DNA from: Plesiomonas shigelloides
GTDB lineage: Bacteria; Pseudomonadota; Gammaproteobacteria; Enterobacterales; CAMTGL01
NCBI RefSeq assembly: GCF_900087055.1
Contig: NZ_LT575468.1
Location: forward strand, 806,001 to 870,000
DNA: 64,000 nucleotides
Reading direction: 5' to 3'
In this document: piece after piece, positions 20,282-43,728 of the stretch
Position numbering within the stretch: position 1 is the stretch's first letter
Layout of the letters: the number at the start of each line of letters is the position of its first letter
Notes under the pieces: model-generated
What the model saw: only the letters and a program-made list of their open reading frames with translations
Databases searched by the model: none
What the model was told of the DNA's origin: nothing
Position numbers and translations under genes: made by a program

Positions 20282-20287
20282 TTACTG

Positions 20288-23022: not shown

Positions 23023-23024
23023 GT

Positions 23025-24266: not shown

Positions 24267-24781
24267 TGCTGCGAACACTGTGGTGTGTGGTATGGCTGTT
24301 GGCGCTGACCGGCTGTACCACACTCGGCAAGATGGCTGATGTGGCGATGAACCCGGATATTCAGGTGGGCAGCAATGCCGATCAACCTTCAACTGTGGGC
24401 TTAAGTTTGCTGGCAGAGCCGGATGTCAATCCGAATGAAAGTGGCGAAGCGGCACCCATAGAGTTTCAGGTTTTGCTGCTGTCTGAAGATTCGCGCTTGT
24501 TGGCCACCGATTACGATCAAGTGACCGAGGATGTGGCCAAGGTATTGGGGAAAAACTACCTCGATCATCAGGATTACACCTTACTTCCTGGGCAATTCAA
24601 GTACCTACCGCCCGTGAAGCTGGAAGAAGAGGTGCGCTATATCGGGGTGATTGCCCATTACGCCGAGCCGGATAAGGCCGAGTGGCGCAAAGTCATCAAG
24701 GTCAAAAACACCGGCCGCCATTATCAGATCTTGGTGCACCTGCGTCAGGATGAAGTTGAACTGCAAAAAGAAGAAGAATAA
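24266..24781 (+). CDS. tssJ: T6SS outer-membrane lipoprotein TssJ/VasD
   Basis: A 171-residue lipoprotein. The signal sequence ends in the lipobox LTGC (Cys near residue 17). The body has a transthyretin-like beta-sandwich pattern, including the family's VNPNESGEAAPIEFQVLLLSEDSRL (about 50-75) and the region VRYIGVIAHYAEPDKAEWRKVIKV. TssJ anchors the trans-envelope TssJLM complex to the outer membrane through TssM. Translation is coupled to tagH by a TGATG overlap, and tssK follows 2 bp after its stop. Confidence 0.94.
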   Translation: MLRTLWCVVWLLALTGCTTLGKMADVAMNPDIQVGSNADQPSTVGLSLLAEPDVNPNESGEAAPIEFQVLLLSEDSRLLATDYDQVTEDVAKVLGKNYLDHQDYTLLPGQFKYLPPVKLEEEVRYIGVIAHYAEPDKAEWRKVIKVKNTGRHYQILVHLRQDEVELQKEEE

Positions 24782-24783
24782 CC

Positions 24784-26124: not shown

Positions 26125-26132
26125 GATGAGCG

Positions 26133-26909: not shown

Positions 26910-26926
26910 GTTAAGGAGAGCGTGCT

Positions 26927-29533
26927 TTGATCCGTATTGAACTGCCCGTCTTGGTGGAAAGGCTGAATCCGGTCTGCCGGCATATGCTGGAAGAAGCGGC
27001 AGCCCTGTGTGTAAATCATCAGGGCACGGAGATCCGAATTGAGCATCTGCTGCTCAAAATGCTGGAAACCCCACTGTGTGATAGCAAAGCGATCATGCAG
27101 CGTGCAGGGGTGGATATGGCGGCGCTGCATGAACTGTTGCAGCCTGCTCTCAATGGCCAGTCTTTTGAGCAGGGATATCCCTCTTTTTCTCCGTTATTGG
27201 TGGAGTGGTTACAAGATAGCTGGCTGTTCGCGTCGGCGGAGTTGCAACACGCTCAGCTACGTAGCGGGGTGTTATTGCTGGTCTTGCTGATGAGCCCTGC
27301 GCGCTATTTACCTGCTTCGGTAGTGCGTTTACTGACAGTGATTAATCGCGATCTGGTGCGCCAGCAGTTTGATGAGTGGGTTAAAGACTCGGCTGAAACC
27401 GAGGTGGTGGCGCAGGCTGGCGAAAGCAAAGCAAACGCCGTCGCTAGCGATGCCTCTTTGTTAGGACGTTTTACCGAAAACATCACCGAGCAAGCACGCA
27501 AAGGGCAGCTGGATCCGGTGTTGTGCCGCGATCATGAAATCGACCTGATGATCGATATCTTATCCCGTCGCCGTAAAAATAACCCGATAGTGGTTGGCGA
27601 AGCTGGGGTGGGTAAAAGTGCCCTAATTGAAGGCTTGGCTCTGCGGATTGTGGCCGGACAGGTGCCAGAAAAATTGCGTAATGTAGCGCTGTTGTCGCTG
27701 GATTTAGGGGCGATGCAGGCCGGCGCTTCGGTTAAAGGGGAATTTGAAAAGCGCTTTAAAGGCGTGATGCAAGAGGTGAAAGCCTCCGAGTACCCGATCA
27801 TCCTCTTTATTGATGAAGCGCATACCTTGATCGGTGCGGGTAATCAGGCTGGTGGATTGGATGTGTCTAACCTGATTAAACCGGCCTTGGCGCGCGGTGA
27901 GCTGCGTACCATTGCGGCAACCACGTGGAGTGAATATAAAAAATACGTCGAAAAGGATGCGGCGCTCTCTCGGCGTTTCCAGTTGGTGAAAGTGGGCGAG
28001 CCTGATGCGCAAGAAGCGACAGTCATTTTGCGTGGCTTACGCGGCATTTATGAAAAAGCCCACGGCGTATTGATTGATGATGAAGCACTGCAAGCGGCGG
28101 CGCAGTTATCGGCTCGTTATATCTCCGGTCGCCAGCTGCCCGACAAAGCCATCGATGTGCTGGATACCGCCTGTGCGCGCGTCGCCATCAATTTGACCAC
28201 TCCGCCGCGCGCGATTAGCCATTTGCAGAATGCGCTGCGCCAACGTGAGTTGGAAATTACCCAATTAGAGCGCCAAAGCGTGATTGGGCTAGGAGAGCAC
28301 AGTGAGCGTTTGGCGCAACTGCATGCATTGCAGGAGCAAGATAACGCCGAACTGACACGCTTGCAGGCCAATTGGCAGCAGCAGCAAGTGATGGTGCAGC
28401 AAATCATCGATGTGCGCGCCGCGTTGTTGCAACACGATGCAGCCACCGATGATGCGAATGTGACAGAACAAACCACGCAGCTTACCGCGCTTGAAGCCGA
28501 GTTGTCGGTGTTGCAACAAGAGTCGGTGCTGGTTTCAGCGCATGTGGATAAGAGTCAGATCGCCTCGGTGATCGCTGAGTGGACTGGCGTGCCACTTAAT
28601 CGGATCTCGCAAGGCGAGTTAGATGTGGTGACTCGCTTACCGGAGTATCTGGGGGCCTGTATCAAAGGCCAAGATGTGGCCGTTAGCCATCTGCATCGCC
28701 ATTTGTTGACTGCGCGCGCCGATTTGCGCCGTCCAGGGCGTCCGCTGGGGGCATTTTTGCTGGTTGGGCCGAGCGGGGTCGGTAAGACTGAAACCGTAGT
28801 GCAGATTGCCGATCTGATGTTTGGTGGCCGTCAGTATCTGACCACCATCAACATGTCGGAATATCAGGAAAAACATACCGTTTCGCGTTTAATCGGCTCG
28901 CCGCCGGGTTATGTCGGTTTTGGCGAAGGCGGCGTGTTAACCGAGGCTATCCGGCAAAAACCGTATTCGGTGGTGCTGCTGGATGAGGTCGAAAAGGCGC
29001 ACCCTGATGTACTGAACCTGTTCTACCAAGCCTTTGATAAAGGGGAATTGGCCGACGGTGAAGGGCGCATCATCGATTGCAAAAATGTGGTGTTTTTCCT
29101 CACCTCCAACTTAGGTTTCCAAACCATTGTCGAGTATGCCCAGCAGCCAGAGCATCTGCTCGATGCCCTGTATCCAGAGTTGGCGGCATTCTTTAAGCCC
29201 GCACTGTTGGCGCGGATGGAAGTGATCCCCTATTTGCCGCTGGATCATGCCACGTTGGTGGAGATTGTCGGTGGCAAGCTGGCGCGTTTGACGTCGTTGC
29301 TCCAGAGCCGCTTTGGCGCCGAGGTAGACATTGACCCGCAGGTGCACGAGGAGATCTTACGCCGCGCTAATCGCAGTGAGAATGGTGCGCGGATGCTCGA
29401 GTCGGTGATTGATGGTGCGCTGTTGCCACCGGTTTCGCTGCAATTGTTGCAGCGGCTGTCAGCGGGCGAATCGGTGCGTAAAGTCAGCTTTGGCGTCACT
29501 GCGGGCGAGTTTATCGCTGAGGTGGAGTGCTAA
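26927..29533 (+). CDS. tssH: T6SS AAA+ sheath-disassembly ATPase TssH/ClpV
   Basis: 868 residues starting at TTG 26927, placed about 8 bases after AAGGAG; the product start MIRIELPVLVERLNPVCRHMLEEAA is the family's usual N terminus. Residues 1-160 form the ClpV N domain. The first AAA module has Walker A GEAGVGKS (about 224) and Walker B LFIDEAHTL; a coiled-coil M domain spans about 410-530; the second AAA module has Walker A GPSGVGKT (614-621) and LLDEVEKAHPDV. ClpV unfolds contracted TssB/C sheath by binding the TssC N terminus. The TTG start may limit its translation. Confidence 0.96.
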   Translation: MIRIELPVLVERLNPVCRHMLEEAAALCVNHQGTEIRIEHLLLKMLETPLCDSKAIMQRAGVDMAALHELLQPALNGQSFEQGYPSFSPLLVEWLQDSWLFASAELQHAQLRSGVLLLVLLMSPARYLPASVVRLLTVINRDLVRQQFDEWVKDSAETEVVAQAGESKANAVASDASLLGRFTENITEQARKGQLDPVLCRDHEIDLMIDILSRRRKNNPIVVGEAGVGKSALIEGLALRIVAGQVPEKLRNVALLSLDLGAMQAGASVKGEFEKRFKGVMQEVKASEYPIILFIDEAHTLIGAGNQAGGLDVSNLIKPALARGELRTIAATTWSEYKKYVEKDAALSRRFQLVKVGEPDAQEATVILRGLRGIYEKAHGVLIDDEALQAAAQLSARYISGRQLPDKAIDVLDTACARVAINLTTPPRAISHLQNALRQRELEITQLERQSVIGLGEHSERLAQLHALQEQDNAELTRLQANWQQQQVMVQQIIDVRAALLQHDAATDDANVTEQTTQLTALEAELSVLQQESVLVSAHVDKSQIASVIAEWTGVPLNRISQGELDVVTRLPEYLGACIKGQDVAVSHLHRHLLTARADLRRPGRPLGAFLLVGPSGVGKTETVVQIADLMFGGRQYLTTINMSEYQEKHTVSRLIGSPPGYVGFGEGGVLTEAIRQKPYSVVLLDEVEKAHPDVLNLFYQAFDKGELADGEGRIIDCKNVVFFLTSNLGFQTIVEYAQQPEHLLDALYPELAAFFKPALLARMEVIPYLPLDHATLVEIVGGKLARLTSLLQSRFGAEVDIDPQVHEEILRRANRSENGARMLESVIDGALLPPVSLQLLQRLSAGESVRKVSFGVTAGEFIAEVEC

Positions 29534-29535
29534 GC

Positions 29536-31077
29536 ATGCAACAGGCACTCGAATTCGCGTTCTCCCTGACGCAGGCGCGCGGGGAGCCGTCACTGTGTGA
29601 TTGGTTGCTGGCGATTGTGCGCCAAGGATGGCAGCCACGCGGTGCGTTACTGGGCATGCTGGATGTCAGCGGTCGCCAGTTGCAATGCCGTGGCTGGGTG
29701 GGAGAGCAGGAGACGACGTTGTCATTGGCGGCGGATGATTTTACCCATCCGCTGGCCTTGGCGCTGTGTCGCGATCAGGTGTGCACTTGGGAGTCTCTCC
29801 ATGGCGGCGCGCGTATTGGTCCAAGCGGATTGCGTCGCATGTTAGCGCAAGCCGGCACCGATAGCGGGATCCACTGCCTGCCATTACATAGCCATGACGG
29901 TAAACCGGTAGCGGTTTTAGCTTTGTTGGATACGGCAGACTGTTTAAAACAGTGGCAAGCGCAAGATGCGCTGGCGTTGCTAACCCAGATTTTTACCGGT
30001 CAGCTTACGCTGATCCGCGATTTAGGGCGTTCGCGTCGAGGGGTCAGCGATTTACAAGACTCTATCCGCGTAATGCGCGGTGAAGGCGAGCAGCGTCGGC
30101 GTCAGGATGAGCGGTTGAAAGAAACCTTAGTCGGTGAATCGCGTGCGATTCGACAGCTGCGTGAGCAAATTGCTAAGGCCGCAGCGCATCGCCTCAATGT
30201 GTTGATTCAGGGCGAAACGGGCACCGGTAAAGAGGTGGTCGCTCGTCTGCTGCATCAGTGTTCTGCGCGTGCTGATAAGCCGTTTGTTGCGATCAACTGT
30301 GCGGCTATCCCAGAAAACCTGATTGAAAGCGAGCTGTTTGGGTACCAAAAAGGAGCGTTTTCGGGGGCGCAAAGCAATAAAACCGGTCTCGTTGCACAAG
30401 CCAATGGCGGCACCTTATTTCTGGATGAAGTGGGTGATATGCCTGCGGGAATGCAGGCCAAGTTGCTGCGCGTGCTGGAAACACGCCATTTTCGGCCGTT
30501 GGGCGGCGATAAAGAGGTGTATTCCGATTTTCGCCTGCTTGCGGCTACGCACCAGCCGCTGGAGCAGCGGGTCAGTGAAGGGCTGTTTCGCCAAGACTTG
30601 TACCATCGCTTATGTCAGTGCCTGTTGATGCTCACGCCGCTGCGTGAGCGGCCGGATGATATCAGTGTGCTTAGCGAGCATTTCATTGCTCATTTTGCCG
30701 CGCAAGAAGGCAAATCGTTTGGTGCGCTGCAGCGTGGTTTTCTCAAGCAGTTAATCAGTTATGACTTTCCCGGCAATGTGCGTGAGCTGCGTAACTTGTT
30801 GGAAGTAGCGTGTGCTCAGACGCCGTCTGGACAGGCGATCACCTTGTCGGCCTTACCGCCGGAAATTCACGACCGCCTGACCGTGGAGCCGGATGCTTAT
30901 CAGGATGATTTTTGCCACGTCAGTGATTTGCGCCAAGCCTTGCAGCAATTTGAGGCTTCCGTGATTGAAGCGCGGTTGCGTTATTTCCAAGGTAACCGGA
31001 TGCGGGTGGCGGAAAGCCTCAATATCCCGAAGCGCACACTGGATCACAAATGCCAGAAGCTGGAGGTTAATGGATGA
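29536..31077 (+). CDS. vasH: Sigma-54-dependent T6SS activator VasH
   Basis: 513 residues from ATG 29536, three bases after the clpV stop. The first 190 residues are a divergent sensory region of GAF-like type. The AAA+ domain has Walker A GETGTGKE (about 225), the sigma-54 contact loop as GAFSGA instead of the usual GAFTGA (about 273), Walker B GGTLFLDEVGD, and the arginine-rich FRQDLYHRL. A Fis-like helix-turn-helix closes the protein (FQGNRMRVAESLNIPKRTLDHKCQKL). In Vibrio cholerae VasH drives sigma-54 transcription of hcp operons outside the main cluster. The Ser variant of the loop is worth noting. Confidence 0.93.
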   Translation: MQQALEFAFSLTQARGEPSLCDWLLAIVRQGWQPRGALLGMLDVSGRQLQCRGWVGEQETTLSLAADDFTHPLALALCRDQVCTWESLHGGARIGPSGLRRMLAQAGTDSGIHCLPLHSHDGKPVAVLALLDTADCLKQWQAQDALALLTQIFTGQLTLIRDLGRSRRGVSDLQDSIRVMRGEGEQRRRQDERLKETLVGESRAIRQLREQIAKAAAHRLNVLIQGETGTGKEVVARLLHQCSARADKPFVAINCAAIPENLIESELFGYQKGAFSGAQSNKTGLVAQANGGTLFLDEVGDMPAGMQAKLLRVLETRHFRPLGGDKEVYSDFRLLAATHQPLEQRVSEGLFRQDLYHRLCQCLLMLTPLRERPDDISVLSEHFIAHFAAQEGKSFGALQRGFLKQLISYDFPGNVRELRNLLEVACAQTPSGQAITLSALPPEIHDRLTVEPDAYQDDFCHVSDLRQALQQFEASVIEARLRYFQGNRMRVAESLNIPKRTLDHKCQKLEVNG

Positions 31078-31682
31078 AAGGTTGGGCGCTGGCCGCGTTA
31101 CTGCTGACCAGCAGCGCGGTGGCACAAACGGATTGGCCTGTGGAATGGCAACGTTGTCGTGCGCAAGCCGCGCCGTTGGCGCGTTTAGCGTGTTATGACG
31201 CAATAGGTGCGAGCAAGGCTCCTGTGTCGGTTAGCGCGCATGATGCCGCACCGCGTTCACTTATCTGGCGTCAAATCCAAGCGCAGGAAGCAAGCCGCAG
31301 TGGTGATAGCCCGCTTTTTATGTTGGGCCAACTGCCGGATTCCGATGATCTGCTACTGACGCGTGCAGCGCTGCGCGGTGGCACCTTGGCGATAGGTTGT
31401 AATAACGCCATTACCCGCATTTGGCTGCGTTTAGATAGCTCCTGGGTGGGCGATCAGGTGAGCGCATCGGTAGATGGTGAGCCGGCAGGTAATAACTGGT
31501 TTGTTCGTGACCACGGGCTGCTGTTGGAGTTTGGTCGTGGATTGCCGGCGATTGACGAGCTTAAGCACTGGAGCGGTCAACGCGAGTTGTTGCTACAGGC
31601 CTCCGATGGCTCTTCGATTCGCGTGGATTTGAGTGGCATGCCCGAGGCATTGCAACCGCTGCGCCAGTTGTGTCGGTGGTAG
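31074..31682 (+). CDS. vasI: T6SS-associated periplasmic protein VasI/TagO
   Basis: A 202-residue protein whose ATG overlaps the vasH stop as ATGA. Residues 1-18 are a signal peptide (KGWALAALLLTSSAVA). The mature start has paired cysteines, WQRCRAQAAPLARLACYDAI, the W-x-x-C-x-x-x-x-x-x-x-x-R-L-x-C-Y-D motif shared by VasI/TagO proteins; the LWRLDSSW-like and VRDHGLLLEFGRGLPAIDELKHW segments also match. The role is accessory and poorly defined; the family is periplasmic and occurs in the V. cholerae-type cluster at the same position. Confidence 0.85.
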   Translation: MKGWALAALLLTSSAVAQTDWPVEWQRCRAQAAPLARLACYDAIGASKAPVSVSAHDAAPRSLIWRQIQAQEASRSGDSPLFMLGQLPDSDDLLLTRAALRGGTLAIGCNNAITRIWLRLDSSWVGDQVSASVDGEPAGNNWFVRDHGLLLEFGRGLPAIDELKHWSGQRELLLQASDGSSIRVDLSGMPEALQPLRQLCRW

Positions 31683-31690
31683 GAGGCAGG

Positions 31691-33112
31691 ATGCAGCATT
31701 CACACCCTTGGTGTCAGCGTTTGCTGACGCCGCTACCGGATGAAGCCATGCGCTGCGCCGTTGCCGCTGACGATCCGCTGTGGGAGAGCGTCGAGACCGA
31801 GTTAGTCAAACTCGGCTCTTTGGCGCATAGCCAAGTGGATTTACAGAAAGTGGCGGGCGCTTGTTTAACCTTACTGGAAACGCGCACCAAAGATATGCGG
31901 GTGTTGGCGCAATTGACCCGTTGTCTGCAGCACCCAGCTAAAGCCACGCCGTTTGCTACCGCACTGATGTTACTGGATTGCTGGGTCGAGGCTTATTGGG
32001 CATGTGCGTGGCCGGCCAGCGTGATGCAAAAACAGCGGGTGGTGAGCCAGATCATCAAGCGTTTTGAGGGAGTATTAGAGCGCGTATGTAGCGCGGCCTC
32101 AAGCGCCGAGTTAACCCAGCTCTTGCAACTGAGCGAAGCGTTTGCTGAGCGTTGGAATGCATTAGCACCGGATAAAAGTGCGCTTTTAGATGAATTATTA
32201 GCGGGTTTACGCCGCGCGCAGCGACAAAAACACGAACAGGCGAAGGCTGATGCGGCGGCGACGCCTGCTGCATCAACAGCATCGTCAACGATATCGGGCC
32301 AGAACGCGGTGTCGGGCGGGGCGGCATCACTGATGAGCGCCAGTAGCCAGTCGGCGATTGATACCTCGGATGAACGGGCTTGGCGTCAGACGCAGTTGCG
32401 CGTCGCTGAGTTACTCATTGAGGCGCAGCCGAGTGCGGCAATCGGTTTTCGCTTACGGCGGCACGCACTGTGGAGTGGGATCACGGCCGCGCCCTTGGTT
32501 AGTCGCGCTAATAAAACCCAGTTGGCGCCGTTTTCTGCTGATATGGCGGATGAGTATCGCAGCGCACTGGCGCAAGCGGATCTGGCGCTATGGCAGAAAA
32601 TCGAGCACAGCCTGACGTTGGCACCCTATTGGTTTGAGGGGCATTACCTCTCGGCACAAGTGGCGCTCAAACTCGGCTATACCGCCGTCGCGAATGCCAT
32701 TGCTGATGAGGTGGGGGCGTTTTTGGCGCGCTTACCGACACTGCGCGAGATGACCTTCAGTGATGGCACCCCGTTTTTAAGTGCTGAATGTAGCCAGTGG
32801 TTGCAACCGGCCGCCAGTGTAGCGGGCGGCTCAGCGGATTTAGGCGGCGAGTTGCAGGCTTGCTGCCAGACACAAGGGCTGTCCGGCGCCTTGAGCATGC
32901 TGGATGAAAAAGTGCGGCAGCTCAAAGAGCCGCGCAGTCGCTTTTATCACCAGTTGGCCGGTGCTGACCTTTTGGCTGCAGAAGGGATGCCGCACTTGGC
33001 CGCCCAACAATATCAATCTTTGTGGCAGGAAACACAGCGCTTAGGACTGGCACAGTGGGAGCCTGGGTTGGTCAACCGCCTGGCACGTTACGCGACCCCG
33101 CGGTCGGCATGA
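31691..33112 (+). CDS. tssA: T6SS assembly protein TssA (VasJ type)
   Basis: 473 residues from ATG 31691, preceded by TAGGAGG at good spacing; the in-frame GTG 31670 overlapping vasI is unlikely. The N terminus carries an ImpA-type domain (PDEAMRCAVAADDPLWESVETELVKLGSLAHSQVDLQKV). A low-complexity Ala/Ser-rich linker lies at about 185-220, followed by the VasJ-specific C-terminal helical domain (WRQTQLRVAELLIEAQPSAAIGFRLRRHALW, LTLAPYWFEGHYLSA). TssA caps the distal end of the growing sheath and coordinates tube and sheath polymerisation. Confidence 0.92.
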   Translation: MQHSHPWCQRLLTPLPDEAMRCAVAADDPLWESVETELVKLGSLAHSQVDLQKVAGACLTLLETRTKDMRVLAQLTRCLQHPAKATPFATALMLLDCWVEAYWACAWPASVMQKQRVVSQIIKRFEGVLERVCSAASSAELTQLLQLSEAFAERWNALAPDKSALLDELLAGLRRAQRQKHEQAKADAAATPAASTASSTISGQNAVSGGAASLMSASSQSAIDTSDERAWRQTQLRVAELLIEAQPSAAIGFRLRRHALWSGITAAPLVSRANKTQLAPFSADMADEYRSALAQADLALWQKIEHSLTLAPYWFEGHYLSAQVALKLGYTAVANAIADEVGAFLARLPTLREMTFSDGTPFLSAECSQWLQPAASVAGGSADLGGELQACCQTQGLSGALSMLDEKVRQLKEPRSRFYHQLAGADLLAAEGMPHLAAQQYQSLWQETQRLGLAQWEPGLVNRLARYATPRSA

Positions 33113-33137
33113 GACATTCGGAGCTGAATGGATAGTT

Positions 33138-36100
33138 ATGTTCAAAACTTTTTTTTCCCTCATTAAGCAAGTCATGTCCCGATTCCGGATCTCATGGATG
33201 GTGATCGGCGTAGTGCTCTGGGCGGTGACGCTCATGTTGGGCTGGTGGTTAGGCCCACAATTAACGCTCGGAGAATTTAAACCCTTGGCCGGTATTTGGC
33301 ATCGGGTGGTGTTTACCCTGGTCTGGTTGTGGCTGATTTTTGGCGTCTACTCTTGGCAGATTTGGAAAAAGATGCAGCAGCTCAAGGCCGAGCGACAAGA
33401 GCAAGAGAGTGCCGAGGCCGATCCGGTCAAGCCGCGTTTGGACGCGCAGCAGCATTTTCTCGATCGCTGGTTACAGGCGCTGCGTGAGCATCTTGGGCGC
33501 GGTGCGCTGTATGCCATGCCGTGGTATCTGGTGATTGGTTTACCGGGCAGTGGTAAAAGCAGTTTGATCCATCGCGCCAATCCGGCCAACAAACTCAATC
33601 CGCGTTTGGAAGCGGAGCTGCGCGATTATGCCGCCGATCAGCAGATTGATTGCTGGGTTGGGGAGCAGGCTGTGATGCTCGATCCGGATGGCAAATTGCT
33701 GACGCAAGCGCACAGCGGTGCGCAGGAGTCGGAGCGGGCTGATGAGCGTTTGTGGCAACACGCCTTGCGCTGGTTGAGTAGCAACCGCCGTCGCCAGCCA
33801 TTAAATGGCTTGGTGCTGACCTTAGATCTGGCGTGGTTGGCACAAGCTGGGGTCGCAGAGCGTCAGGCATATGCGCAGATGATGTGCGCGCGTTTGCAGG
33901 ATATCAGCTTACACATTAATACCCGTTTGCCGCTGTACATCACGCTGACCAAGCTGGATATGCTGCGTGGCTTTGATGTCTTGTATCAGCAGTTGGATAA
34001 AGAGGCGCGTGATGCCGTACTGGGAGTCACGTTCAGTCCGGATAGTAGCCAAGGCGATGAGTGGCTGCAGGAGCTGGATAAGTTCTGGACGCAGTGGCTG
34101 GATCATCTGAACAACAACCTGCCGTCGATGATGTTGGATAAGCTCGATGCGGCGCAGCGCAGCACGTTGTTTGCGTTTGTACGCCAGCTAGCGGGGCTGA
34201 AAGATTATGTGCTGGAAGTACTGGGCGACATCTTAACCGACAAAGAGCAAAAAGGGCTGTTGATGCGCGGGGTGTATATCAGCTCGGTGTATCAGCAAGG
34301 TGTGCCGTTTGATGCTTTCACGCAAGCGGCGTCCAACCGTTATCAGCTGGCCGAGCCGGTGCATTCGGCGCTACGTGGTGAATCGAACGCCTTTTTTGTG
34401 CGTAGCTTGTTTGCCGACATCATCTTCCCTGAGGCGCATTTGGCCGGGGAGAACCGTCTGCATACCTTGTATCGCCGACGTCGGATGGCGATCGGGGTGG
34501 GTTCACTGTCGTTGTGTTGTGCGCTGCTGATTGCCGGTTGGCACCACTTTTACCGCGTCAATGAAGCGGCGGGTCACAATGTGCTGAACAAAGCGCAGGC
34601 CTTTACCGGTACCGGAGAGCTGACGGGGGAGCAAGGCTTTGGCTACAGCCAGTTGCCGCGCTTGAACTTGATTCGTGAGGCGACGCTGTCGTTTGGTGAT
34701 TATCGCGATAAAACCCCATTGTTGGCCGATTTGGGTCTGTATCAAGGCGATCGGATCGGGCCATATGTTGAAGGCACTTATCTGCAGCTGCTGAACCTGC
34801 GCTTTTTACCGGCGGTCATGCAAGGGTTGCTGGATGATTTAAATCAGGCGCCGGCAGGCAGTGAGCAGAAACTGGCGATCTTGCGCGTAATGCGCATGCT
34901 CGATGATGCCTCTGGGCGCAATAACGCCCTGGTCGAACAGTTTATGGCTCAGCGTTGGCAGCAGGCATTTCCTGGTCAAGGGCAGGTACAAGAACAGCTG
35001 ATGCAGCATCTGGATTATGCCCTGCAACACACCAACTGGTATGGCGCTCGGCAAAATAAAGATCAGGCTGCAATCAGTGCCTTCGCTCCGTTCAGTAAGC
35101 CGGTTTATGCCGCGCAGCGTGAGCTGAGCAAGTTACCGATGTTCCAGCGCGTGTACCAAAGCTTGGTGGTGAAGGCCAACGATCAGTTAGCGCCCGATTT
35201 GGCCATTCGTGACGAAGTGGGTCCAACCTTTGACAGCGTATTTGTGCTGCGTAGCGATGATGCTGGCACCGTACCGCGCCTATTAACGTGGCCAGGCTTT
35301 AGCGAGTTTTTCTTGCGTCAGGATAAAACCCTGATGGATTTAACCGCCATGGATGTTTGGGTGTTGGGCCAGCGCCAGCAAGTCAGTTTGAGTGCGGCGG
35401 ATCGTAAGGAGATCTCTCGTCAGGTCAATGATCGTTATGTGACCGATTACGTTAACCACTGGCAAAAAATGCTCAGCAGCTTGGATGTCCAGCCACTGAG
35501 TAGCCCTGAGCAGGCGCTGAACGTGTTGGCCGCTGTGATTGGCAATGATCAACCGTTCCAACGGGTATTGAGCGCGCTCAACAACAACACGCGAATTCGG
35601 CCGTTGTCGGAGGAAGAAAATGCGTTGGCGCAAGGGATCCTGAGCCGTATTGGTCGACCGTTTATTAACAGCAATGCCGCGTTAAGTGGTAATGGCGAGC
35701 AAGCGCCAGTGATTCAGGAGGTTAACCAAAAACTGACTGAGCTGTATCACTATCTGGAGCTGATTGTGAATGCCAATGATCCGGGCCAATCGGCGCTGAA
35801 AGCCGTGCAAGTCCGCCTAGGTAACAAGTATGCCGATCCGGTGTTTGCTCTGCAGCAGTATGCGCGCAGTCTGCCGGCGCCGCTGAATCGCTGGGTAGGG
35901 CAGATAGCCGAGCAAAGCGCTGCCTTGGTGGTGGATATGGCCATGTCATCACTCAACCAAGAGTGGCAAGAGCAGGTGATTCAGCCGTTTACCACCCTGC
36001 TGGCCGATCGTTATCCGTTTGATTTAGGGGCGGATAAAGATGCGCCACTTTCTGAAATGGAGCGTTTTTTTGCTCCTGGCGGCACGCTGGATAGCTTCTA

Positions 36101-36635
36101 TCAAACCAACTTAAAACCGATGGTAGACAGTGGGTTAATGAGTAGCGAACAAGGCTCGCCGTTGCAAAATGAGCTGTTAAAGCAGCTGGAGCGCGCCAGC
36201 AAAATTCGGGAAACCTTCTTTAACGCTCAAGGCTATCTGGAAGTGCAGTTTGCGCTGGAGCCTATTGAGCTGACCGCCAATAAACGGCGCAGTGTGCTCA
36301 ATATTGATGGGCAGCTGCTGGAGTATGCGCATGGCCGGCGTAGCAAAATCCCACTGATTTGGCCGAACACGATGCGTGATGGTGCTGAAAGTAAAATCAC
36401 CTTGGTGCCAGCTAACCGTGAAAACTCGCCCCGCAGTGAAAGCTTTACCGGACCGTGGGCGATGTTCCGCTTGATGCAAAAAGGTGAGCTGACACAGGTG
36501 AATGCTGGCACGTTTGATGTGCGCTTCCCAGTCGACAAAGGCGCGATGACCTATCGGGTATACGCCGATGCTAGCCATAACCCATTTGCCGGTGGATTGT
36601 TCAATCAGTTCCGTCTGCCCGAATCACTGTATTAA
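33138..36635 (+). CDS. tssM: T6SS inner-membrane scaffold TssM/IcmF/VasK
   Basis: At 1165 residues this has the full TssM architecture. Two membrane helices lie near residues 13-35 and 54-73, a third near 450-472. The cytoplasmic domain between them has a Walker A (GLPGSGKSS, about 134-142) as in IcmF GTPase-like domains. The long periplasmic part ends with the conserved TssM C terminus (GPWAMFRLMQKGELTQVNAGTFDVRFPVDKGAMTYRVYAD) that binds TssJ. TssM with TssJ and TssL spans the envelope and allows passage of the tube. A GC-rich hairpin follows the stop. Confidence 0.96.
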   Translation: MFKTFFSLIKQVMSRFRISWMVIGVVLWAVTLMLGWWLGPQLTLGEFKPLAGIWHRVVFTLVWLWLIFGVYSWQIWKKMQQLKAERQEQESAEADPVKPRLDAQQHFLDRWLQALREHLGRGALYAMPWYLVIGLPGSGKSSLIHRANPANKLNPRLEAELRDYAADQQIDCWVGEQAVMLDPDGKLLTQAHSGAQESERADERLWQHALRWLSSNRRRQPLNGLVLTLDLAWLAQAGVAERQAYAQMMCARLQDISLHINTRLPLYITLTKLDMLRGFDVLYQQLDKEARDAVLGVTFSPDSSQGDEWLQELDKFWTQWLDHLNNNLPSMMLDKLDAAQRSTLFAFVRQLAGLKDYVLEVLGDILTDKEQKGLLMRGVYISSVYQQGVPFDAFTQAASNRYQLAEPVHSALRGESNAFFVRSLFADIIFPEAHLAGENRLHTLYRRRRMAIGVGSLSLCCALLIAGWHHFYRVNEAAGHNVLNKAQAFTGTGELTGEQGFGYSQLPRLNLIREATLSFGDYRDKTPLLADLGLYQGDRIGPYVEGTYLQLLNLRFLPAVMQGLLDDLNQAPAGSEQKLAILRVMRMLDDASGRNNALVEQFMAQRWQQAFPGQGQVQEQLMQHLDYALQHTNWYGARQNKDQAAISAFAPFSKPVYAAQRELSKLPMFQRVYQSLVVKANDQLAPDLAIRDEVGPTFDSVFVLRSDDAGTVPRLLTWPGFSEFFLRQDKTLMDLTAMDVWVLGQRQQVSLSAADRKEISRQVNDRYVTDYVNHWQKMLSSLDVQPLSSPEQALNVLAAVIGNDQPFQRVLSALNNNTRIRPLSEEENALAQGILSRIGRPFINSNAALSGNGEQAPVIQEVNQKLTELYHYLELIVNANDPGQSALKAVQVRLGNKYADPVFALQQYARSLPAPLNRWVGQIAEQSAALVVDMAMSSLNQEWQEQVIQPFTTLLADRYPFDLGADKDAPLSEMERFFAPGGTLDSFYQTNLKPMVDSGLMSSEQGSPLQNELLKQLERASKIRETFFNAQGYLEVQFALEPIELTANKRRSVLNIDGQLLEYAHGRRSKIPLIWPNTMRDGAESKITLVPANRENSPRSESFTGPWAMFRLMQKGELTQVNAGTFDVRFPVDKGAMTYRVYADASHNPFAGGLFNQFRLPESLY

Positions 36636-36642
36636 GCCGTTA

Positions 36643-36660
36643 CGGGGCCATCAGGCCCCG
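36643..36660 (+). other. Intercistronic hairpin between tssM and vasL
   Basis: CGGGGCC and GGCCCCG form a perfect 7-bp all-GC stem with an ATCA loop. No T-run follows, so it probably stabilises or processes the message rather than terminating it. Confidence 0.6.
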
Positions 36661-36681
36661 AAGTGACAGGACCTATTAAAG

Positions 36682-38094
36682 ATGCAAGATGCACAACAGG
36701 CGCTGAAAGTCGGGCAAGACCCACGCATGCTGCCGGAATATGAAGCGCTGCGCGCGGAAATTAACAAACTGAGCCACGCATCGCGCCCCGATGTGGATTG
36801 GCAACGGATCCATCAGCTCGCCAGTCGCATTTTTGAGATTCACGGGGTGGATTTACAAACCGCCATTTATTTCACCTTGGCACGTGCGCGCTTACAAGGG
36901 CTGCGCGGCTTTACCGAAGGCTGTGAGTTTCTGGCGAATCTGATTGTGACGCAGTGGGACACCTTCTGGCCGCCTCGGCATCAAGAGCGCGCTCGGATCG
37001 AGATGCTGGATTGGTTCATTGCCCGGATCAGCGATGTGATGCGCCAATACCCGATTAGCCATGAAGACAAACGGCTGATTTACCGTAGTGAGCGAGCGCT
37101 GCAATTGATCAGTGAAAAGCTGCATACCTCGGGGCTGAGTCGTGTGCCGCGCATTGAGAATCTGCTGCATTTCGTCGAGGGCTATAGTCATCTGTTTGAT
37201 GAGACCGAGATTGTGATTGTGTCTGACGAACAGATCAGCAAAGTCGATGACATGCAGGTCCCGCCAATGGTGTTCTTCAGCCCTGACAGCGCGAGTGATG
37301 GTGCCGTGACGGTGGCACCAACCTTGCCACACGGCAGCATCTTGGTCGGCCGTGAAAAAGGGCAAGTGAAACCAACGGTACTCAAAATTGAGACCCAGCG
37401 TAAGCCAAAACCGGCATGGTTCTGGTTTGCCTGTGGCGCTCTGAGTTGTTTATTGCCCGCGTTGATTGCGTGGATTGGCTATGGCCAGCAAGAGAAAAAA
37501 GAGGCTGCGTTAGCACTGGTGCAGCCAGTGGCAATCCAGCCGTTGGCGCTGACCTATGACGATATTCGCCAAGCGCGATCTACGTTAGGTGAGCAGGCAT
37601 TGCAGGGGATGGAGCGCCGTGTGTTATCTCGCTACCAGAGTCAATTGACGCAGGCTGAGCAAGCCTCGCCTTTGTATTGGTATCGCTATGGCGACAGCTT
37701 AAATCAGGCATTACAGATGCTGTATCCGGACTCTTTGGCCGTTAAAACTATGAACCAGCAATGGCAGGATGGCTTGCAAAAAAATCTCACCAATTTGCCA
37801 TCGCTGGCCGATTACGATGCCGCTCGGGAAGGTGTTGATGCGTTATTGGAGCGTTTACAGGTACTCGAGAGTCAGCGTAAAAGCGTCAGTATTTCCTACC
37901 TCAAAACTCAGTTGTACGAAGTACAAAAGTCGTTGCTGACGGGAGCCCCGTTTGCACAGCGCTTGAATGCATTGGAAGCCAGATTGAGTGCGCAAGAGCC
38001 GATCAGTCAAGCCGATCTCAGTGCACTGGAAAGTGAGTTGAAAGCGTTCAGCGTGCGTTTGTATCAGTTGCAAAAAAGCCGCTCTGATAGCTAA
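36682..38094 (+). CDS. vasL: T6SS VasL-type membrane protein with ImpA N-terminal domain
   Basis: A 470-residue protein. Residues about 15-160 are an ImpA_N domain (YEALRAEINKLSHASRPDVDWQRIHQLASRIFEIHGVDLQTAIYFTLARARLQGL...) related to TssA. A single membrane helix follows near 246-268 (WFWFACGALSCLLPALIAWIGYG), then a coiled-coil-rich C-terminal half, presumably periplasmic. In V. cholerae the corresponding gene (vasL) occupies the same place downstream of vasK. Role is accessory; membrane-bound TssA-like proteins of this type stabilise sheath anchoring in some systems. Confidence 0.87.
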   Translation: MQDAQQALKVGQDPRMLPEYEALRAEINKLSHASRPDVDWQRIHQLASRIFEIHGVDLQTAIYFTLARARLQGLRGFTEGCEFLANLIVTQWDTFWPPRHQERARIEMLDWFIARISDVMRQYPISHEDKRLIYRSERALQLISEKLHTSGLSRVPRIENLLHFVEGYSHLFDETEIVIVSDEQISKVDDMQVPPMVFFSPDSASDGAVTVAPTLPHGSILVGREKGQVKPTVLKIETQRKPKPAWFWFACGALSCLLPALIAWIGYGQQEKKEAALALVQPVAIQPLALTYDDIRQARSTLGEQALQGMERRVLSRYQSQLTQAEQASPLYWYRYGDSLNQALQMLYPDSLAVKTMNQQWQDGLQKNLTNLPSLADYDAAREGVDALLERLQVLESQRKSVSISYLKTQLYEVQKSLLTGAPFAQRLNALEARLSAQEPISQADLSALESELKAFSVRLYQLQKSRSDS

Positions 38095-38134: not shown

Positions 38135-38422
38135 ATGTGTCCTTCAATTGTATTGCTGGGTGATATCGGCACCGATCATGACGGCTTTCATCCTTCTCCG
38201 GTGATTGCGGCCAGCCCTGATGTGTTCTTGGACAACAAGCCGGTGGCACGGCAAGGCGATGCCCTTGAGCCGCACGATAAACCCAATAATCCCCCCCATC
38301 CACGCAGTATTGCAGCAGGGGTTGGTTCAGTGTTGGTGAATGGCCAGCCAATAGCGGTTACCGGTAAGCCGGTCGATTGCGGTGGTGTCGTCATCGGCTC
38401 TGGCAGTGGTCAGGCTGGCTGA
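38135..38422 (+). CDS. PAAR-domain spike tip protein
   Basis: A 95-residue protein consisting of little more than a PAAR domain: the repeats SPDVFLDNKPVARQGDALEPHDK and GVGSVLVNGQPIAVTGKPVDCGG have the P-x-V-x-x-N-x-x-x-A-x-x-G-D pattern with histidine and cysteine residues that could bind the tip zinc. PAAR proteins form the sharp tip on the VgrG trimer. It lies 27 bp before vgrG, and AGGAG stands upstream of its ATG. No C-terminal effector extension is fused to it. Confidence 0.92.
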   Translation: MCPSIVLLGDIGTDHDGFHPSPVIAASPDVFLDNKPVARQGDALEPHDKPNNPPHPRSIAAGVGSVLVNGQPIAVTGKPVDCGGVVIGSGSGQAG

Positions 38423-40514: not shown

Positions 40515-43112
40515 ATGAAAATCGTCTACCCCATGCAGTTGGCGGGAGAGGGTACTCCCAAGGAAATTGCATCACTTGATGAGTTTATTAGCCAGCTCAA
40601 TAAATTAAATAGTGGAACCTTCCCTATAGGACGTAATCGTATTTGGCATGGTGGAGTTCACCTCAGCGAAAAAGGGGGATGGCATTCAAGCGGTGCTGTT
40701 CGTGCTATTGCTGATGGAGAAATTGTTGCTTATCGGTTTGCGACTGAACCTGCTAAAGCAACGCGTAAATCTGAAGCCGGGGAGCCTGAGCACGAGATTG
40801 ATTTGTATACCTCTCCTTCGTTTTGCCTAATTCGTCACCGCTATGAGGCGGGAGAGAAAAATAAAAACAGCTTAACTTTTTATAGCTTGTACATGCATAT
40901 AGCTTGTGAAAACAGCTATAGCGCTGAGCCTGAGCGGTATGTTGTTGATGGTAATGACGTCTCTATTTATAAGGGATCTGCGGGGTTGCAGCTTAAGTCT
41001 GAAGATAAATTAGGCATTGCGCGGAAAGGGGCTGAAGTTATTTTAGTGGATAGGAATAATTGGTCTGAGAGATACAACTTGCGCAATGAGCCTCAAATTT
41101 ACCAATTGATGTGCTATGCCGAGCCCAAGGCCGGAGATCCTGAACTGTTTTATATTGCGGCAAAATATATCAAGGCCGAGTGTAAAATGAAACCTAACTG
41201 GCTGACTCCACCGGAAAGTAAGCCAGCTCGCTATACAGTACCTAATAATACATGGCTAAGAAAAACGGCGGACAGTACTGAAGAAAGTACTGGAGTACCT
41301 GCCGGTAGTGAAGTTGTGTTGTTAGGTGAGCAACAGATGGTAACGATTAACGGTGGTCTTACTGATTTTCGTCAAGTTCAAGTGTTCAAAGTGGGGAACG
41401 GAACCGTCAAGAATAGTGCTAATCAGGTGATGGCTAATGCTAGCAAGGGTTCGATTGGCTGGTTAGCAAAAAATAAATTCGGTGCGGCTTTAACCGCGGA
41501 ATCTAGCATCCCGATTGAGTTTGATAAGGTTGTATTGCGTGATAGTAACCCAATAGCTGTTCAGGCAGGCGAGGTTATCGGCCATTGGGGCGAGCACCAA
41601 GTGGCAACGTCCAGTGCGAGTGGATTTAGCCTCGATCCTGATCAGAAGGCTGTACATTTTGAAGTGTTTGTCACTGAGAAAGATACGCAAGATAAGCAGA
41701 TGCTTAACGATTGTATCCAGAACAAAGCGCAGGTAACCGGTGGTCAGGATTACTTGGTTATTAAGAAGAATGAGGTTGATACGTGCCGCCTGACTAACCA
41801 TAAAAACCAACCAAGTTATAAGAATGTGGCTAAACTTGGTCCACTGACTGTCCCGTTGGCGGTAAAGAAGGCTGATATTGTTACTCATGGCACCCAAAAA
41901 TTTGTTCGAGTACGCGAACGTGCTGCGGCAAAAGGGGAATTGGCTGGGGAATTTGTCTTATTGGCGGGTGATACTGAGTTACTAAGCCAACATGATTGGG
42001 GCAAGTTAGGGGTTAAACTCGTTGATGGCAGTAGTGATCCTGATGGGTTCTTGGATAAACAGGATACAGAAGGTCAGGAAGGTGGGGCATTTTTTAGCAC
42101 TCTTTATGACCAACTAACTATAGATCGAGACAATGATAATGTACTGAGTGGCGACGAAATTAAATCTGCTTTGGCCGATGATGATTTGGCAAACAAGCTG
42201 CGCCGGTTATTTATCAAGCATGAAAGTGAATGGATAAAGCGTGATAAAGGGTGGCCACGTCTTCAAAAAGAGCTAGCTGACCAGCCTAAACTGTATGAAT
42301 ATGCAATGCAGGTACACAACAATATGGCTTGGGTTGAAGAAGCTAAAGAGATATTGGGCAACTCTAAAATGTGGTTTATTCATCCGGCTGGGATGATGGG
42401 GTTGGTGTCTGAGTTTTCAAAGAAAAAAATCACACTGGCCATGTTAAGAAAAATATGGAGTGACATAGGATTAGTCTCTGACGATTTACTAGATGTTGTT
42501 GCTAATGAATTAAATAGTAATATTGAAAATATGAAAATTAATACTAGTAACCGACTATACCACTTTATGGCTCAAGTTTACCAAGAGGTAGGTTCTTCTT
42601 TTAAGGTTGTTGAGAATTTAAACTATAAGCCAAGTGTTCTTATTGGTAAATTTGAATACTATTCTAAGAGGCCAGATGAAGCTGAGCAAGATGGAAGGAC
42701 TCGAGAGCATCCTGCTAACCAAATCACTATAGCTAATAAAGCTTATGCTAATAGATATGAAAATGGTTCTGTGAAAAGTGGTGATGGTTATAAATATAGA
42801 GGTAGAGGCGCGAAACAATTAACGTTTAGAAGTAATTACAAGGAGTTCACCCGATTTAGTCGGGCAGAGTGGGGTACGCTTGATGATTATGAGTTGAATC
42901 CCGATTTACTTGTTAACATAGATATATCAATTCGCTCTGCATTGTTTTTTTGGCGACAAAAGAAATTATATTCCATAGCCGATCAAGGTGTCACATACGC
43001 TGAATCAAGCGCTATAACTAAAGTGGTTAACAAATATGATGATAGCTATCAAAAACGATTTAAAAATCTTACGTCATTTATTTCAATGGGAGTTTTTGAT
43101 GATGTTTTATAA
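40515..43112 (+). CDS. Putative T6SS cell-wall effector: split M23-like + EF-hand + GH19 lysozyme-like domains
   Basis: An 865-residue protein directly after vgrG. The start resembles an M23 peptidase (WHGGVHL with H45 and H49; AIADGEIVAYR; FYSLYMH with H128). Its closing strand, AGEVIGHWGEH ... VHFEVF (H381), comes only after an SH3-like segment at about 235-322. Compared with M23, the usual HxxxD Asp is His49 and the first His of HxH is missing. Residues 537-548 are a perfect-length EF-hand loop (DRDNDNVLSGDE). Residues about 680-860 match GH19 chitinase/lysozyme domains: AQVYQEVGSSF with Glu691 as likely acid, ENLNY, SGDGYKYRGRGAKQLTFRSNY. There is no signal peptide, as expected for T6SS cargo. 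From memory, this order resembles the Aeromonas dual-function effector TseP; that was not checked. The coding GC falls toward the 3' end. Confidence 0.8.
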   Translation: MKIVYPMQLAGEGTPKEIASLDEFISQLNKLNSGTFPIGRNRIWHGGVHLSEKGGWHSSGAVRAIADGEIVAYRFATEPAKATRKSEAGEPEHEIDLYTSPSFCLIRHRYEAGEKNKNSLTFYSLYMHIACENSYSAEPERYVVDGNDVSIYKGSAGLQLKSEDKLGIARKGAEVILVDRNNWSERYNLRNEPQIYQLMCYAEPKAGDPELFYIAAKYIKAECKMKPNWLTPPESKPARYTVPNNTWLRKTADSTEESTGVPAGSEVVLLGEQQMVTINGGLTDFRQVQVFKVGNGTVKNSANQVMANASKGSIGWLAKNKFGAALTAESSIPIEFDKVVLRDSNPIAVQAGEVIGHWGEHQVATSSASGFSLDPDQKAVHFEVFVTEKDTQDKQMLNDCIQNKAQVTGGQDYLVIKKNEVDTCRLTNHKNQPSYKNVAKLGPLTVPLAVKKADIVTHGTQKFVRVRERAAAKGELAGEFVLLAGDTELLSQHDWGKLGVKLVDGSSDPDGFLDKQDTEGQEGGAFFSTLYDQLTIDRDNDNVLSGDEIKSALADDDLANKLRRLFIKHESEWIKRDKGWPRLQKELADQPKLYEYAMQVHNNMAWVEEAKEILGNSKMWFIHPAGMMGLVSEFSKKKITLAMLRKIWSDIGLVSDDLLDVVANELNSNIENMKINTSNRLYHFMAQVYQEVGSSFKVVENLNYKPSVLIGKFEYYSKRPDEAEQDGRTREHPANQITIANKAYANRYENGSVKSGDGYKYRGRGAKQLTFRSNYKEFTRFSRAEWGTLDDYELNPDLLVNIDISIRSALFFWRQKKLYSIADQGVTYAESSAITKVVNKYDDSYQKRFKNLTSFISMGVFDDVL

Positions 43113-43728
43113 ATTTTTCATCGCTGCATTTTTTTTCGTTTTTCCAAATAGCTCTGTTATGGCTACGGAGGTTTATGCTCGATTATTGAACGATTCATCT
43201 TGGGGTATATTCATCGAAGGAAAAAGTCATGAAATAATATCTTTTGAGTTAGATGGAAATGCTAGGGATGTTAATATTGTTGAAAAACATAGGCGAGAAT
43301 GTAATTCTCAGGTTGTTGATGAAGTGGTGGTTAATTCTAACTCATCTAACGGTGATAGTGGTGAGGTATATTTTTATAAAATAGCAATATCCTCATCTGG
43401 TATAGTGATATTTTTTGATGTGTCCACATTAAGTTTAAATAAAAAAAATGGGCTTCAATCTTCACAGTCAGATATTTGCGATTATATAGATTCCGATCTT
43501 AATTTAAATATTTTGTATAAGAAGAAAATAAACACATTAAAATCACCTCTTCTGTTAGAGCGATTCAAAGACTCCCAAAGAAAGTGGTTAGCTTATAGAG
43601 ATGCAGCTTGTCTTTATGAGTCAACTGATTTTAATTATGAGAGTGACGCTCCTTATATGAAGGCGGTGGGTCAAACCTGTATATCGAAAATTACTCTAGA
43701 TAGAAATAAGTATATCGAAACCATTTAG
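43099..43728 (+). CDS. Putative periplasmic immunity protein with LprI lysozyme-inhibitor-like domain
   Basis: 209 residues from ATG 43099, which follows GGGAG; the ORF is open further upstream to 43036, but only this start gives a signal peptide (MMFYKFFIAAFFFVFPNSSVMA). It overlaps the effector stop by 14 bp, so translation is probably coupled. The C-terminal segment DSQRKWLAYRDAACLYES ... AVGQTCISKITLDRNKYIE (about 157-205) has the W-x-x-Y-R-D-x-x-C and C-x-x-x-x-T-x-x-R pattern of the LprI/DUF1311 family, named after a mycobacterial lysozyme inhibitor. The N-terminal half is not recognised. Location, export and fold fit protection of the periplasm against the GH19 domain. Very AT-rich. 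Confidence 0.72.
   Translation: MMFYKFFIAAFFFVFPNSSVMATEVYARLLNDSSWGIFIEGKSHEIISFELDGNARDVNIVEKHRRECNSQVVDEVVVNSNSSNGDSGEVYFYKIAISSSGIVIFFDVSTLSLNKKNGLQSSQSDICDYIDSDLNLNILYKKKINTLKSPLLLERFKDSQRKWLAYRDAACLYESTDFNYESDAPYMKAVGQTCISKITLDRNKYIETI

What the first reader, a model, noticed from the sequence alone, without database searches (positions are those of the whole stretch)
40515..43728. VgrG-linked effector-immunity pair at the end of the T6SS cluster
The sequence shows a large unexported protein with two cell-wall hydrolase-like domains directly after vgrG, followed by an overlapping gene for an exported small protein. Effector plus coupled immunity gene after vgrG is the known T6SS cargo arrangement. 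The domain combination (M23-like, SH3-like, EF-hand, GH19) with an LprI-type immunity partner is, to my knowledge, not a standard textbook pair, although the Aeromonas effector TseP may be related.
Basis: partly seen in the sequence, partly recalled or inferred. Interest (0 to 1): 0.78.

Follow-up and report, generated by a model that had tools for sequence, protein, structure and literature searches.

The report
TseP/WHIX-type T6SS effector with immunity gene
This Plesiomonas locus encodes a cell-wall-cutting toxin of the kind that a bacterial injection machine fires into rival bacteria, followed by the gene for its antidote; it is a new example of a recently described effector family rather than a new kind of system.

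Summary
A T6SS cluster ends in PAAR, vgrG, an 865-aa effector (40515-43112) and a coupled, exported neighbour. The neighbour most likely starts at 43102 (or 43099), not 43036, so the overlap is 11-14 bases.

The effector is a TseP-family, subclass-I WHIX effector. All six residues whose mutation reduced TseP's amidase activity are present (H45, H49, H128, H361, H381, E572), as are both lysozyme glutamates (E691, E700). The C-domain best matches crystallised TseP-C (8xcl). Identity to relatives collapses after residue ~640, where C-domain and neighbour gene are swapped between loci. VgrG tail type follows the N-domain type. The neighbour has a signal peptide and an LprI domain; LprI immunity for WHIX effectors is already in print, so the kind is known.

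Against function in this strain: three searches found no hcp (T6SS tube) gene in the genome, although a same-genus genome has one.

A synthesis I found in no paper searched: the "bipartite" WHIX domain resembles an M23 peptidase fold with HxxxH for HxxxD, split by SH3-like stretches; one amidase-critical histidine occurs in 11 of 11 TseP-clade and 0 of 15 other WHIX sequences. No activity was tested.

The parts
17833..38094 (+). T6SS core cluster: tssB, tssC, tssE, tssF, tssG, tagH (Fha), tssJ, tssK, tssL, clpV (tssH), sigma-54 regulator, vasI, tssA, tssM, VasL-like; no hcp found here or elsewhere in the genome
   Evidence: NCBIfam and Pfam VasL; hcp searches
38135..38422 (+). PAAR tip protein (only PAAR match in the genome)
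   Evidence: NF033420 E=5e-43; one match in own genome
38447..40480 (+). VgrG spike (only match in the genome); C-terminal tail ends DYQPSV, like the VgrGs upstream of the closest Aeromonas effector relatives
40515..43112 (+). TseP-family / WHIX subclass-I effector, 865 aa
40587..40949 (+). WHIX region I (residues 25-145): WHxxxH (W44, H45, H49) and YMH (H128), resembling the first half of an M23 peptidase
40938..41180 (+). SH3-like stretch 1 (residues 142-222), between the two WHIX halves
   Evidence: VIA-align, weak to moderate
41214..41504 (+). SH3-like stretch 2 (residues 234-330)
   Evidence: VIA-align best Z 7.9 to 2hbw
41517..41714 (+). WHIX region II (residues 335-400): AGEVIGHWGEH...AVHFEV with H361 and H381, resembling the second half of an M23 peptidase
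42123..42155 (+). EF-hand loop (residues 537-547, DRDNDNVLSGD)
   Evidence: Pfam EF-hand in relatives
42435..43109 (+). C-terminal GH19/TseP-C-like lysozyme domain (residues 641-865), putative catalytic E691 and E700; 34.2% GC
43087..43092 (+). Shine-Dalgarno-like TGGGAG for the immunity gene, inside the effector gene
   Evidence: sequence
43102..43728 (+). Putative immunity protein (208 aa from 43102, 209 aa from 43099), with signal peptide
43489..43707 (+). LprI (PF07007) domain of the immunity protein, residues 130-202 of 208
   Evidence: E=1.1e-7; helical model with a DUF1311 protein, 3gi7, as top fold match

Best explanation
The effector is T6SS cargo. [quoted passage not shown] There the C-domain (641-865) hydrolyses peptidoglycan glycan strands. 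The N-module, an M23-like fold with a His-based metal site interrupted by SH3-like domains, most likely also cleaves stem peptides from the glycan as TseP-N does. The translationally coupled, Sec-exported LprI-domain protein binds the effector in the producer's own periplasm and protects it and its kin. Shown here: homology, conserved catalytic residues, gene order, overlap with its own ribosome-binding site, signal peptide, domain swapping. Inferred: docking, secretion, both enzyme activities, immunity. Whether this strain can fire its T6SS is doubtful, because no hcp gene was found; the pair would then act only as immunity here, or need an hcp unit such as the one in the sister genome.
For: T6SS cluster with PAAR and vgrG directly upstream. 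TseP-C 8xcl is the best solved relative of the C-domain: E=2.2e-16 with the single sequence, 1.8e-21 with a 17-sequence profile that includes it. TseP positions H19/H23/H109/H339/H359/E539 and E655/E663 map, with one constant offset on the A. piscicola relative L006, onto H45/H49/H128/H361/H381/E572 and E691/E700 (residues from PMC11893102). The same GC steps as reported for TseP: vgrG 54.3%, N-domain 44.4%, C-domain 34.2%. VgrG tails sort with N-domain clade, as expected from published tail swaps (PMC8668125, passages). The C-domains and neighbour proteins at 23 related effector loci fall into several unrelated types.
Against: No activity, secretion or protection data for this protein. No Hcp found in this one-contig genome with PF05638, with TIGR03344 at E<=1 or with the sister genome's Hcp at E<=10, while same-genus G001 has one (E=5e-62): the machine may not work in this strain unless hcp lies in a masked stretch or outside the assembly. 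Pfam GH19 is below its cut-off and M23 is not called in the window protein. The AlphaFold model of the effector is mediocre (mean pLDDT 64.5, residues 1-60 under 50). The immunity protein's first ~110 residues have no relative in 369 genomes of the class, only a sub-threshold NCBIfam match (YqiH, 17.2 against 140 bits) and no confident model. The immunity protein shows no detectable likeness to the neighbour of the TseP-like gene in L006.
Confidence: 0.87

Rival explanations
1. Single-blade WHIX effector: the N-module is only a secretion adaptor (a catalytically dead M23-like fold) and all toxicity comes from the C-terminal lysozyme domain.
For: The WHIX domain of Awe1 was not toxic in the E. 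coli periplasm (PMC12135965, passages). The canonical M23 HxxxD is HxxxH here, and the first His of HxH is Ala. TseP H339A still kills E. coli prey (PMC11893102).
Against: All six residues whose mutation reduced TseP-N amidase activity are present, including H361, which 0 of 15 other WHIX sequences have. TseP-N is a reported amidase in vitro, and two homologues are reported to have both activities (PMC11893102).
Confidence: 0.25
2. A relic: the effector-immunity pair belongs to a T6SS that no longer fires in this strain, and persists mainly because the antidote protects against T6SS-active kin.
For: No hcp by three searches; only one vgrG, whereas sister genome G001 has an hcp-vgrG unit and another paper lists hcp, vgrG1 and vgrG2 primers for P. 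shigelloides (PMC9743648, passages).
Against: The other core genes, the effector and the neighbour are open reading frames of full expected length against their families, which suggests either recent loss or an hcp not visible in the held sequence.
Confidence: 0.2
3. A phage- or housekeeping-type GH19 endolysin gene beside vgrG by chance, not a T6SS effector; the LprI protein is a general lysozyme inhibitor.
For: 992 of 50,697 phage records match the C-domain; the ten listed are mostly annotated endolysin or chitinase. Three further LprI matches lie elsewhere in this genome, two over the cut-off, and LprI relatives stand beside unrelated genes in others.
Against: The C-domain is fused to a 640-residue WHIX module found beside vgrG in Aeromonas. 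The neighbour overlaps the effector stop with its own ribosome-binding site.
Confidence: 0.03
4. The LprI-domain protein protects mainly against host or foreign lysozyme and is not the cognate antidote of this effector.
For: M. tuberculosis LprI is described as a lysozyme inhibitor (cited in PMC8867033).
Against: Overlapping start. LprI proteins also follow pesticin-type WHIX effectors in Aeromonas. LprI/DUF1311 proteins are listed beside WHIX toxins (PMC12135965).
Confidence: 0.07

Closest known systems
TseP-TsiP, Aeromonas dhakensis (PMC11893102; 8xcl)
   Same: VgrG-linked; N-domain with the published amidase residues; GH19-like lysozyme C-domain with both glutamates; EF-hand; GC steps
   Different: C-domain diverged (26-52% identity per 50 residues over 701-850 to the L006 and L016 relatives); the neighbour carries an LprI domain and has no detectable likeness to the neighbour in the TseP-like locus L006
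WHIX subclass-I effectors (PMC12135965)
   Same: WHxxxH plus second conserved region at the N-terminus, C-terminal peptidoglycan enzyme, VgrG/PAAR neighbourhood, signal-peptide immunity gene, LprI/DUF1311 reported among immunity proteins
   Different: Carries the extra His (H361) confined in this sample to the TseP clade, so the N-module may itself be an enzyme
LprI-domain immunity SED_RS06230 of the LysM effector, Salmonella Dublin (PMC8867033)
   Same: Signal peptide plus PF07007 beside a predicted T6SS peptidoglycan-hydrolase effector
   Different: 146-aa protein with a LysM/transglycosylase effector; here 208 aa with an N-terminal part of its own and a GH19-like effector
Tae17, Acinetobacter baumannii (PMC11796386, abstract and outline seen)
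   Same: Bifunctional amidase plus glycan-cleaving VgrG cargo effector
   Different: Glycan-cleaving part is a lytic transglycosylase; homology not tested

Membership tests
TseP family | N-domain residues whose mutation reduced amidase activity (H19, H23, H109, H339, H359, E539) | tested here: met
   H45, H49, H128, H361, H381, E572
TseP family | C-domain related to TseP-C with E655/E663 | tested here: met
   8xcl E=2.2e-16; E691/E700; Z 13.0
TseP family | Encoded directly after its carrier vgrG | tested here: met
TseP family | Dual amidase and lysozyme activity | not testable with these tools
   needs purified protein
TseP family | TsiP-type immunity protein (partner, not part of the effector definition) | tested here: inconclusive
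   No likeness to the neighbour of the TseP-like gene in L006; the TsiP sequence itself was not in hand
WHIX effectors | WHxxxH in a first conserved region plus a second conserved region | tested here: met
   WHGGVH at 44-49; H45/H49 in 25 of 26 (the 26th has a gap there), H128 and H381 in 26 of 26 aligned sequences
WHIX effectors | C-terminal (subclass I) peptidoglycan-targeting domain | tested here: met
WHIX effectors | Encoded in a genome with a T6SS | tested here: inconclusive
   Core genes, PAAR and VgrG present, Hcp not found
WHIX effectors | WHIX-mediated T6SS secretion | not testable with these tools
   needs secretion assay
M23 peptidase (PF01551) | Pfam profile match | tested here: not met
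   No PF01551 match in the window protein at E<=1; filed only as M23-like
M23 peptidase (PF01551) | HxxxD and HxH metal motif | tested here: not met
   HxxxH and AVH instead
M23 peptidase (PF01551) | Same fold/profile in register | tested here: inconclusive
   Regions I and II score 25.3 and 25.0 against shuffled maxima 17.8 and 14.9, but hhalign probabilities are 24% and 41%; compact homologue L086 aligns over 95 columns, probability 32%; the low-confidence model does not show it
GH19 (PF00182) | Pfam score over cut-off | tested here: not met
   17.2 against 25.5 bits; described as GH19-like
GH19 (PF00182) | GH19 endolysin fold | tested here: met
   9ms7 Z 16.2, 9eoi Z 14.3
LprI / DUF1311 (PF07007) | Pfam score over cut-off | tested here: met
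   32.6 against 22 bits
LprI / DUF1311 (PF07007) | DUF1311 fold | tested here: inconclusive
   3gi7 is the top match, prob 0.92, but E=0.42

The most novel reading that the evidence does not exclude
The WHIX secretion domain as a whole is a repurposed M23 (LytM-type) peptidase fold, split by SH3-like insertions and with HxxxH in place of HxxxD. It is catalytically active only in the TseP clade that has an extra histidine (H361 here), and a dead-enzyme docking module elsewhere. The Plesiomonas effector would then be a true two-enzyme member whose docking domain is itself a blade, covered by one LprI-containing antidote.
Probability: 0.4. Interest if true: 0.55.

Novelty: new member of a known kind. 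Interest (0 to 1): 0.34.

Why it matters
It places the one VgrG-linked effector seen in this Plesiomonas genome in a known class and gives residue-level tests. More widely, it links two 2025 descriptions (TseP-N as a zinc amidase; WHIX as a non-toxic secretion domain), which I found connected in no paper searched, through one structural hypothesis and one diagnostic histidine. It also adds a case where N-domain and VgrG tail travel together while the toxic C-domain and antidote are swapped.

Tried and rejected
Chance neighbour or endolysin reading: rejected because of the fused WHIX module and the vgrG linkage. Full-length relatives of the immunity protein: none in 369 genomes drawn from the class (4 genomes besides its own matched, only within residues 112-206), none in the 5 genomes of the effector relatives, none in plasmids (2 records, partial). 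Three of the four LprI loci were looked at; they stand beside unrelated genes (gene naming by recall). PDB sequence search with the immunity protein: no match at E<=10. The fold search with the effector model listed four chains at E<=0.001, all endolysins or 8xcl. VIA-align listed one lytic endopeptidase (8s3m, Z 5.4, rmsd 5.3) over a range spanning both WHIX halves, too weak to count. TsiP's own sequence and PSPTO_5204 (reported amidase-active, 343-residue N-domain) were not in hand and the 2021 TseP paper was not held, so the H361 idea lacks its sharpest existing test. The 26 aligned effectors are a convenience sample: ORFs of at least 600 aa from held loci with a hit reaching query residue <140, exact duplicates removed. 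Shorter fragments (for example L038, L040) and C-domain-only hits (for example L009, L010, L033, L034, L036) were dropped before counting. The 15 'other WHIX' sequences all come from the Aeromonas genus search or an Aeromonas locus and most are closely related, so 0 of 15 is few independent events; by eye L083 has Tyr and the plasmid protein P0001 has Phe at that place. One genome per species is held, so polymorphism within the species was not testable.
Full report
WHAT IS THERE. The window lies in a 3.41-Mb single-contig genome. Its genus is Plesiomonas: the same-genus genome G001 carries an effector gene identical in DNA to that of a contig titled uncultured Plesiomonas sp.. T6SS genes run from 17833 to 38094 (tssB, tssC, tssE, tssF, tssG, tagH, tssJ, tssK, tssL, clpV, a sigma-54 regulator, vasI, tssA, tssM and a VasL-like gene), then PAAR and vgrG, the only PAAR and VgrG matches found in this genome. 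The 865-aa ORF begins 34 bases after vgrG. Its stop codon (43110-43112) overlaps the likely start of the next gene at 43102 or 43099, which has a Shine-Dalgarno-like TGGGAG at 43087-43092 and a typical signal peptide. The 43036 start given in the finding is the first ATG of the frame and is unlikely.

A GAP. No hcp, the tube protein every T6SS needs (established knowledge), was found in this genome: PF05638 gave nothing, TIGR03344 nothing at E<=1, and the Hcp of sister genome G001 nothing at E<=10. The TIGR03344 search works in the same run: G001 matches at 5e-62, beside a second vgrG, and another P. shigelloides paper lists hcp and two vgrG genes and shows killing of E. coli that partly depends on RpoN (PMC9743648, passages). 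Either this strain has lost the hcp-vgrG unit and cannot fire, or hcp lies in a masked stretch or outside the held sequence. This bears on function in this strain, not on what the effector is.

THE EFFECTOR. The C-terminal domain matches the crystallised C-domain of TseP (8xcl) at E=2.2e-16, then GH19-type endolysins. A profile of 17 sequences, the window's included, gives 1.8e-21. The model's C-domain aligns with endolysins, chitinases and 8xcl at Z 9.7-16.2. Related domains occur in 992 of 50,697 phage records. Relatives of the N-domain or of most of the protein sit in Aeromonas and a second Plesiomonas (5 loci; 25 of 37 genomes of the Aeromonas genus group have some match at E<=0.001, many of them partial). 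I mapped the residues published for TseP (PMC11893102: abstract, Introduction, parts 1 and 2 of 3 of Results, and passages read) by way of the A. piscicola relative L006. A single offset of 26 puts H19, H23, H109, H339, H359, E539, E655, E663, Y720, R723 and K796 on the stated residue types; only E654, which the paper also names in one sentence, falls on His. The window protein has H45, H49, H128, H361, H381, E572, E691 and E700 at the mutated or catalytic positions.

MODULARITY. In the 11-member clade, identity to the window protein is mostly 40-80% per 50 residues up to about residue 600 (lower in a few blocks), 38-58% at 601-650, and mostly 0-30% beyond. Pfam types among 17 aligned members at E<=0.01: GH19 in 6, pesticin in 5, one muramidase, one VgrG3-like. 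Of 25 proteins scanned (the window's neighbour, 23 neighbours of related effectors, and one orphan in L005), 5 carry LprI, 1 TsiV3 and 1 SH3_3. The scan does not name the five; by BLAST linkage they are presumably the window's, L013, L037, L018 and the L005 orphan. In those four others the associated toxin is pesticin-like, by Pfam for L013 and the L005 orphan and by close likeness for L037 and L018, whereas the window pairs LprI with a GH19-like C-domain. VgrG tails group as ...DYQPS(A/V) in the window, L003, L004, L005 and L013...FFVPSR in L006, L016 and L018; and ...LFSE beside the more distant WHIX effectors in L005 (second unit), L022 and L031. L013 and L018 share C-domain type and LprI neighbour but differ in N-domain (best-alignment identity to the window protein 66% and 45%) and VgrG tail. 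This fits delivery specificity residing in N-domain plus VgrG tail, and toxicity plus antidote being exchanged. The GC steps (vgrG 54.3%, N-domain 44.4%, C-domain 34.2%, immunity gene 32.1%) repeat the pattern reported for TseP.

THE N-DOMAIN. It has WHGGVH at 44-49, the WHxxxH signature that names WHIX (PMC12135965; section 6, Discussion and passages read). Among 26 aligned sequences, H45 and H49 are present in 25 (the 26th has a gap there), and H108, H128, H381 and E572 in 26. H361 (TseP H339) is present in 11 of 11 TseP-clade members and 0 of 15 others, which have V (14) or Y (1); these 15 are Aeromonas sequences, most of them closely related. Pfam does not call M23 here. I compared the pieces with a profile of 25 M23 domains, those of 30 fetched loci that passed a motif filter. 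WHIX region I and region II, tested apart, score 25.3 and 25.0 against maxima of 17.8 and 14.9 from 20 column-shuffled profiles each; the absolute hhalign probabilities are modest, 24% and 41%. The stretch between them scores 15.3 (shuffled maximum 13.6) and the stretch after them 11.8 (17.4), each with probability under 1%. The matches are in register: WHGGVH on HxGxD, YMH on YxH, AGEVIGHWG...AVHFEV on GqvIa..G...HLHFEv. A relative without the long insertion (L086) aligns to M23 over 95 columns, score 27.8, probability 32%, against a maximum of 15.5 in 50 shuffles, and Pfam gives it Peptidase_M23 at E=0.0017, below the cut-off. The region between the halves contains the SH3-like stretches 142-222 and 234-330 (best Z 7.9). 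I read this as an M23-like fold with His replacing the metal-binding Asp, interrupted by SH3-like domains. The TseP paper itself superposes its amidase domain on 3SLU. The WHIX paper says the identity of the sequence separating the two halves remains to be investigated, reports that WHIX alone is not toxic, and cites the 2021 TseP work among secreted WHIX proteins. Searching the held library for WHIX with TseP gave that paper alone, so I found no statement linking the two 2025 results; preprints and most subscription journals are not covered.

THE IMMUNITY PROTEIN. 208 aa from 43102: signal peptide, about 90 residues without detectable relatives beyond a sub-threshold NCBIfam match, then LprI (residues 130-202). 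Only the last 80 residues model well (pLDDT mostly 84-93, dipping to 61-70 around residues 171-190), with a DUF1311 protein as top but statistically weak fold match. LprI immunity is not new: it is proposed for Salmonella Dublin SED_RS06230 (PMC8867033, passages) and listed for WHIX loci (PMC12135965). TsiP is reported to inhibit both TseP domains; whether one LprI-containing protein covers both blades here is open.

JUDGEMENT. A well-supported new member of the TseP/WHIX class with an LprI-type partner, in a strain whose T6SS may lack its tube protein. The added value is the M23-fold reading of WHIX and the clade-restricted histidine as a testable marker of whether the secretion module is also an enzyme. 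Results against it: a poor N-terminal model, no fold-search M23 hit, modest profile probabilities, HxxxH instead of HxxxD, and no access to PSPTO_5204, the reported distant amidase that could break the histidine rule.

Noticed in passing
whole genome G000; L090 1501-2019 and 2211 onward for comparison: No hcp gene found in the window's genome by three searches and only one vgrG, while sister genome G001 has an hcp-vgrG unit: a T6SS cluster possibly without its tube protein.
   Followed up: partly
L002 5042-7612 and 7597-8325 (uncultured Plesiomonas): A TseP-like effector and its secreted neighbour stand alone between ampD-like and nadC-like genes (names by recall from sequence), with no vgrG found in 5 kb upstream: an orphan WHIX pair.
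   Followed up: partly
L088 2462-4687 and 4688-5125 (CP057065.1): A 6.7-kb E. coli plasmid with Rop carries a 741-aa WHIX-type protein and a 145-aa neighbour with an apparent signal peptide, and none of its 7 listed features is named a T6SS gene: a WHIX effector pair on a tiny plasmid.
   Followed up: partly
L005 9389-10479: A free-standing pesticin-like ORF with an LprI neighbour lies between two vgrG-WHIX units, perhaps a spare C-domain cassette.
   Followed up: partly
   Followed up: yes
window 44071-45606: A peptidase C69 family gene (PF03577, E=1.7e-145) follows the T6SS cluster; apparently unrelated.
   Followed up: no
own genome C1:1577437-1577709, 1313944-1314108, 1148515-1148799: Three further LprI-like matches elsewhere in the genome, two of them over the Pfam cut-off; their neighbours were not examined.
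   Followed up: no
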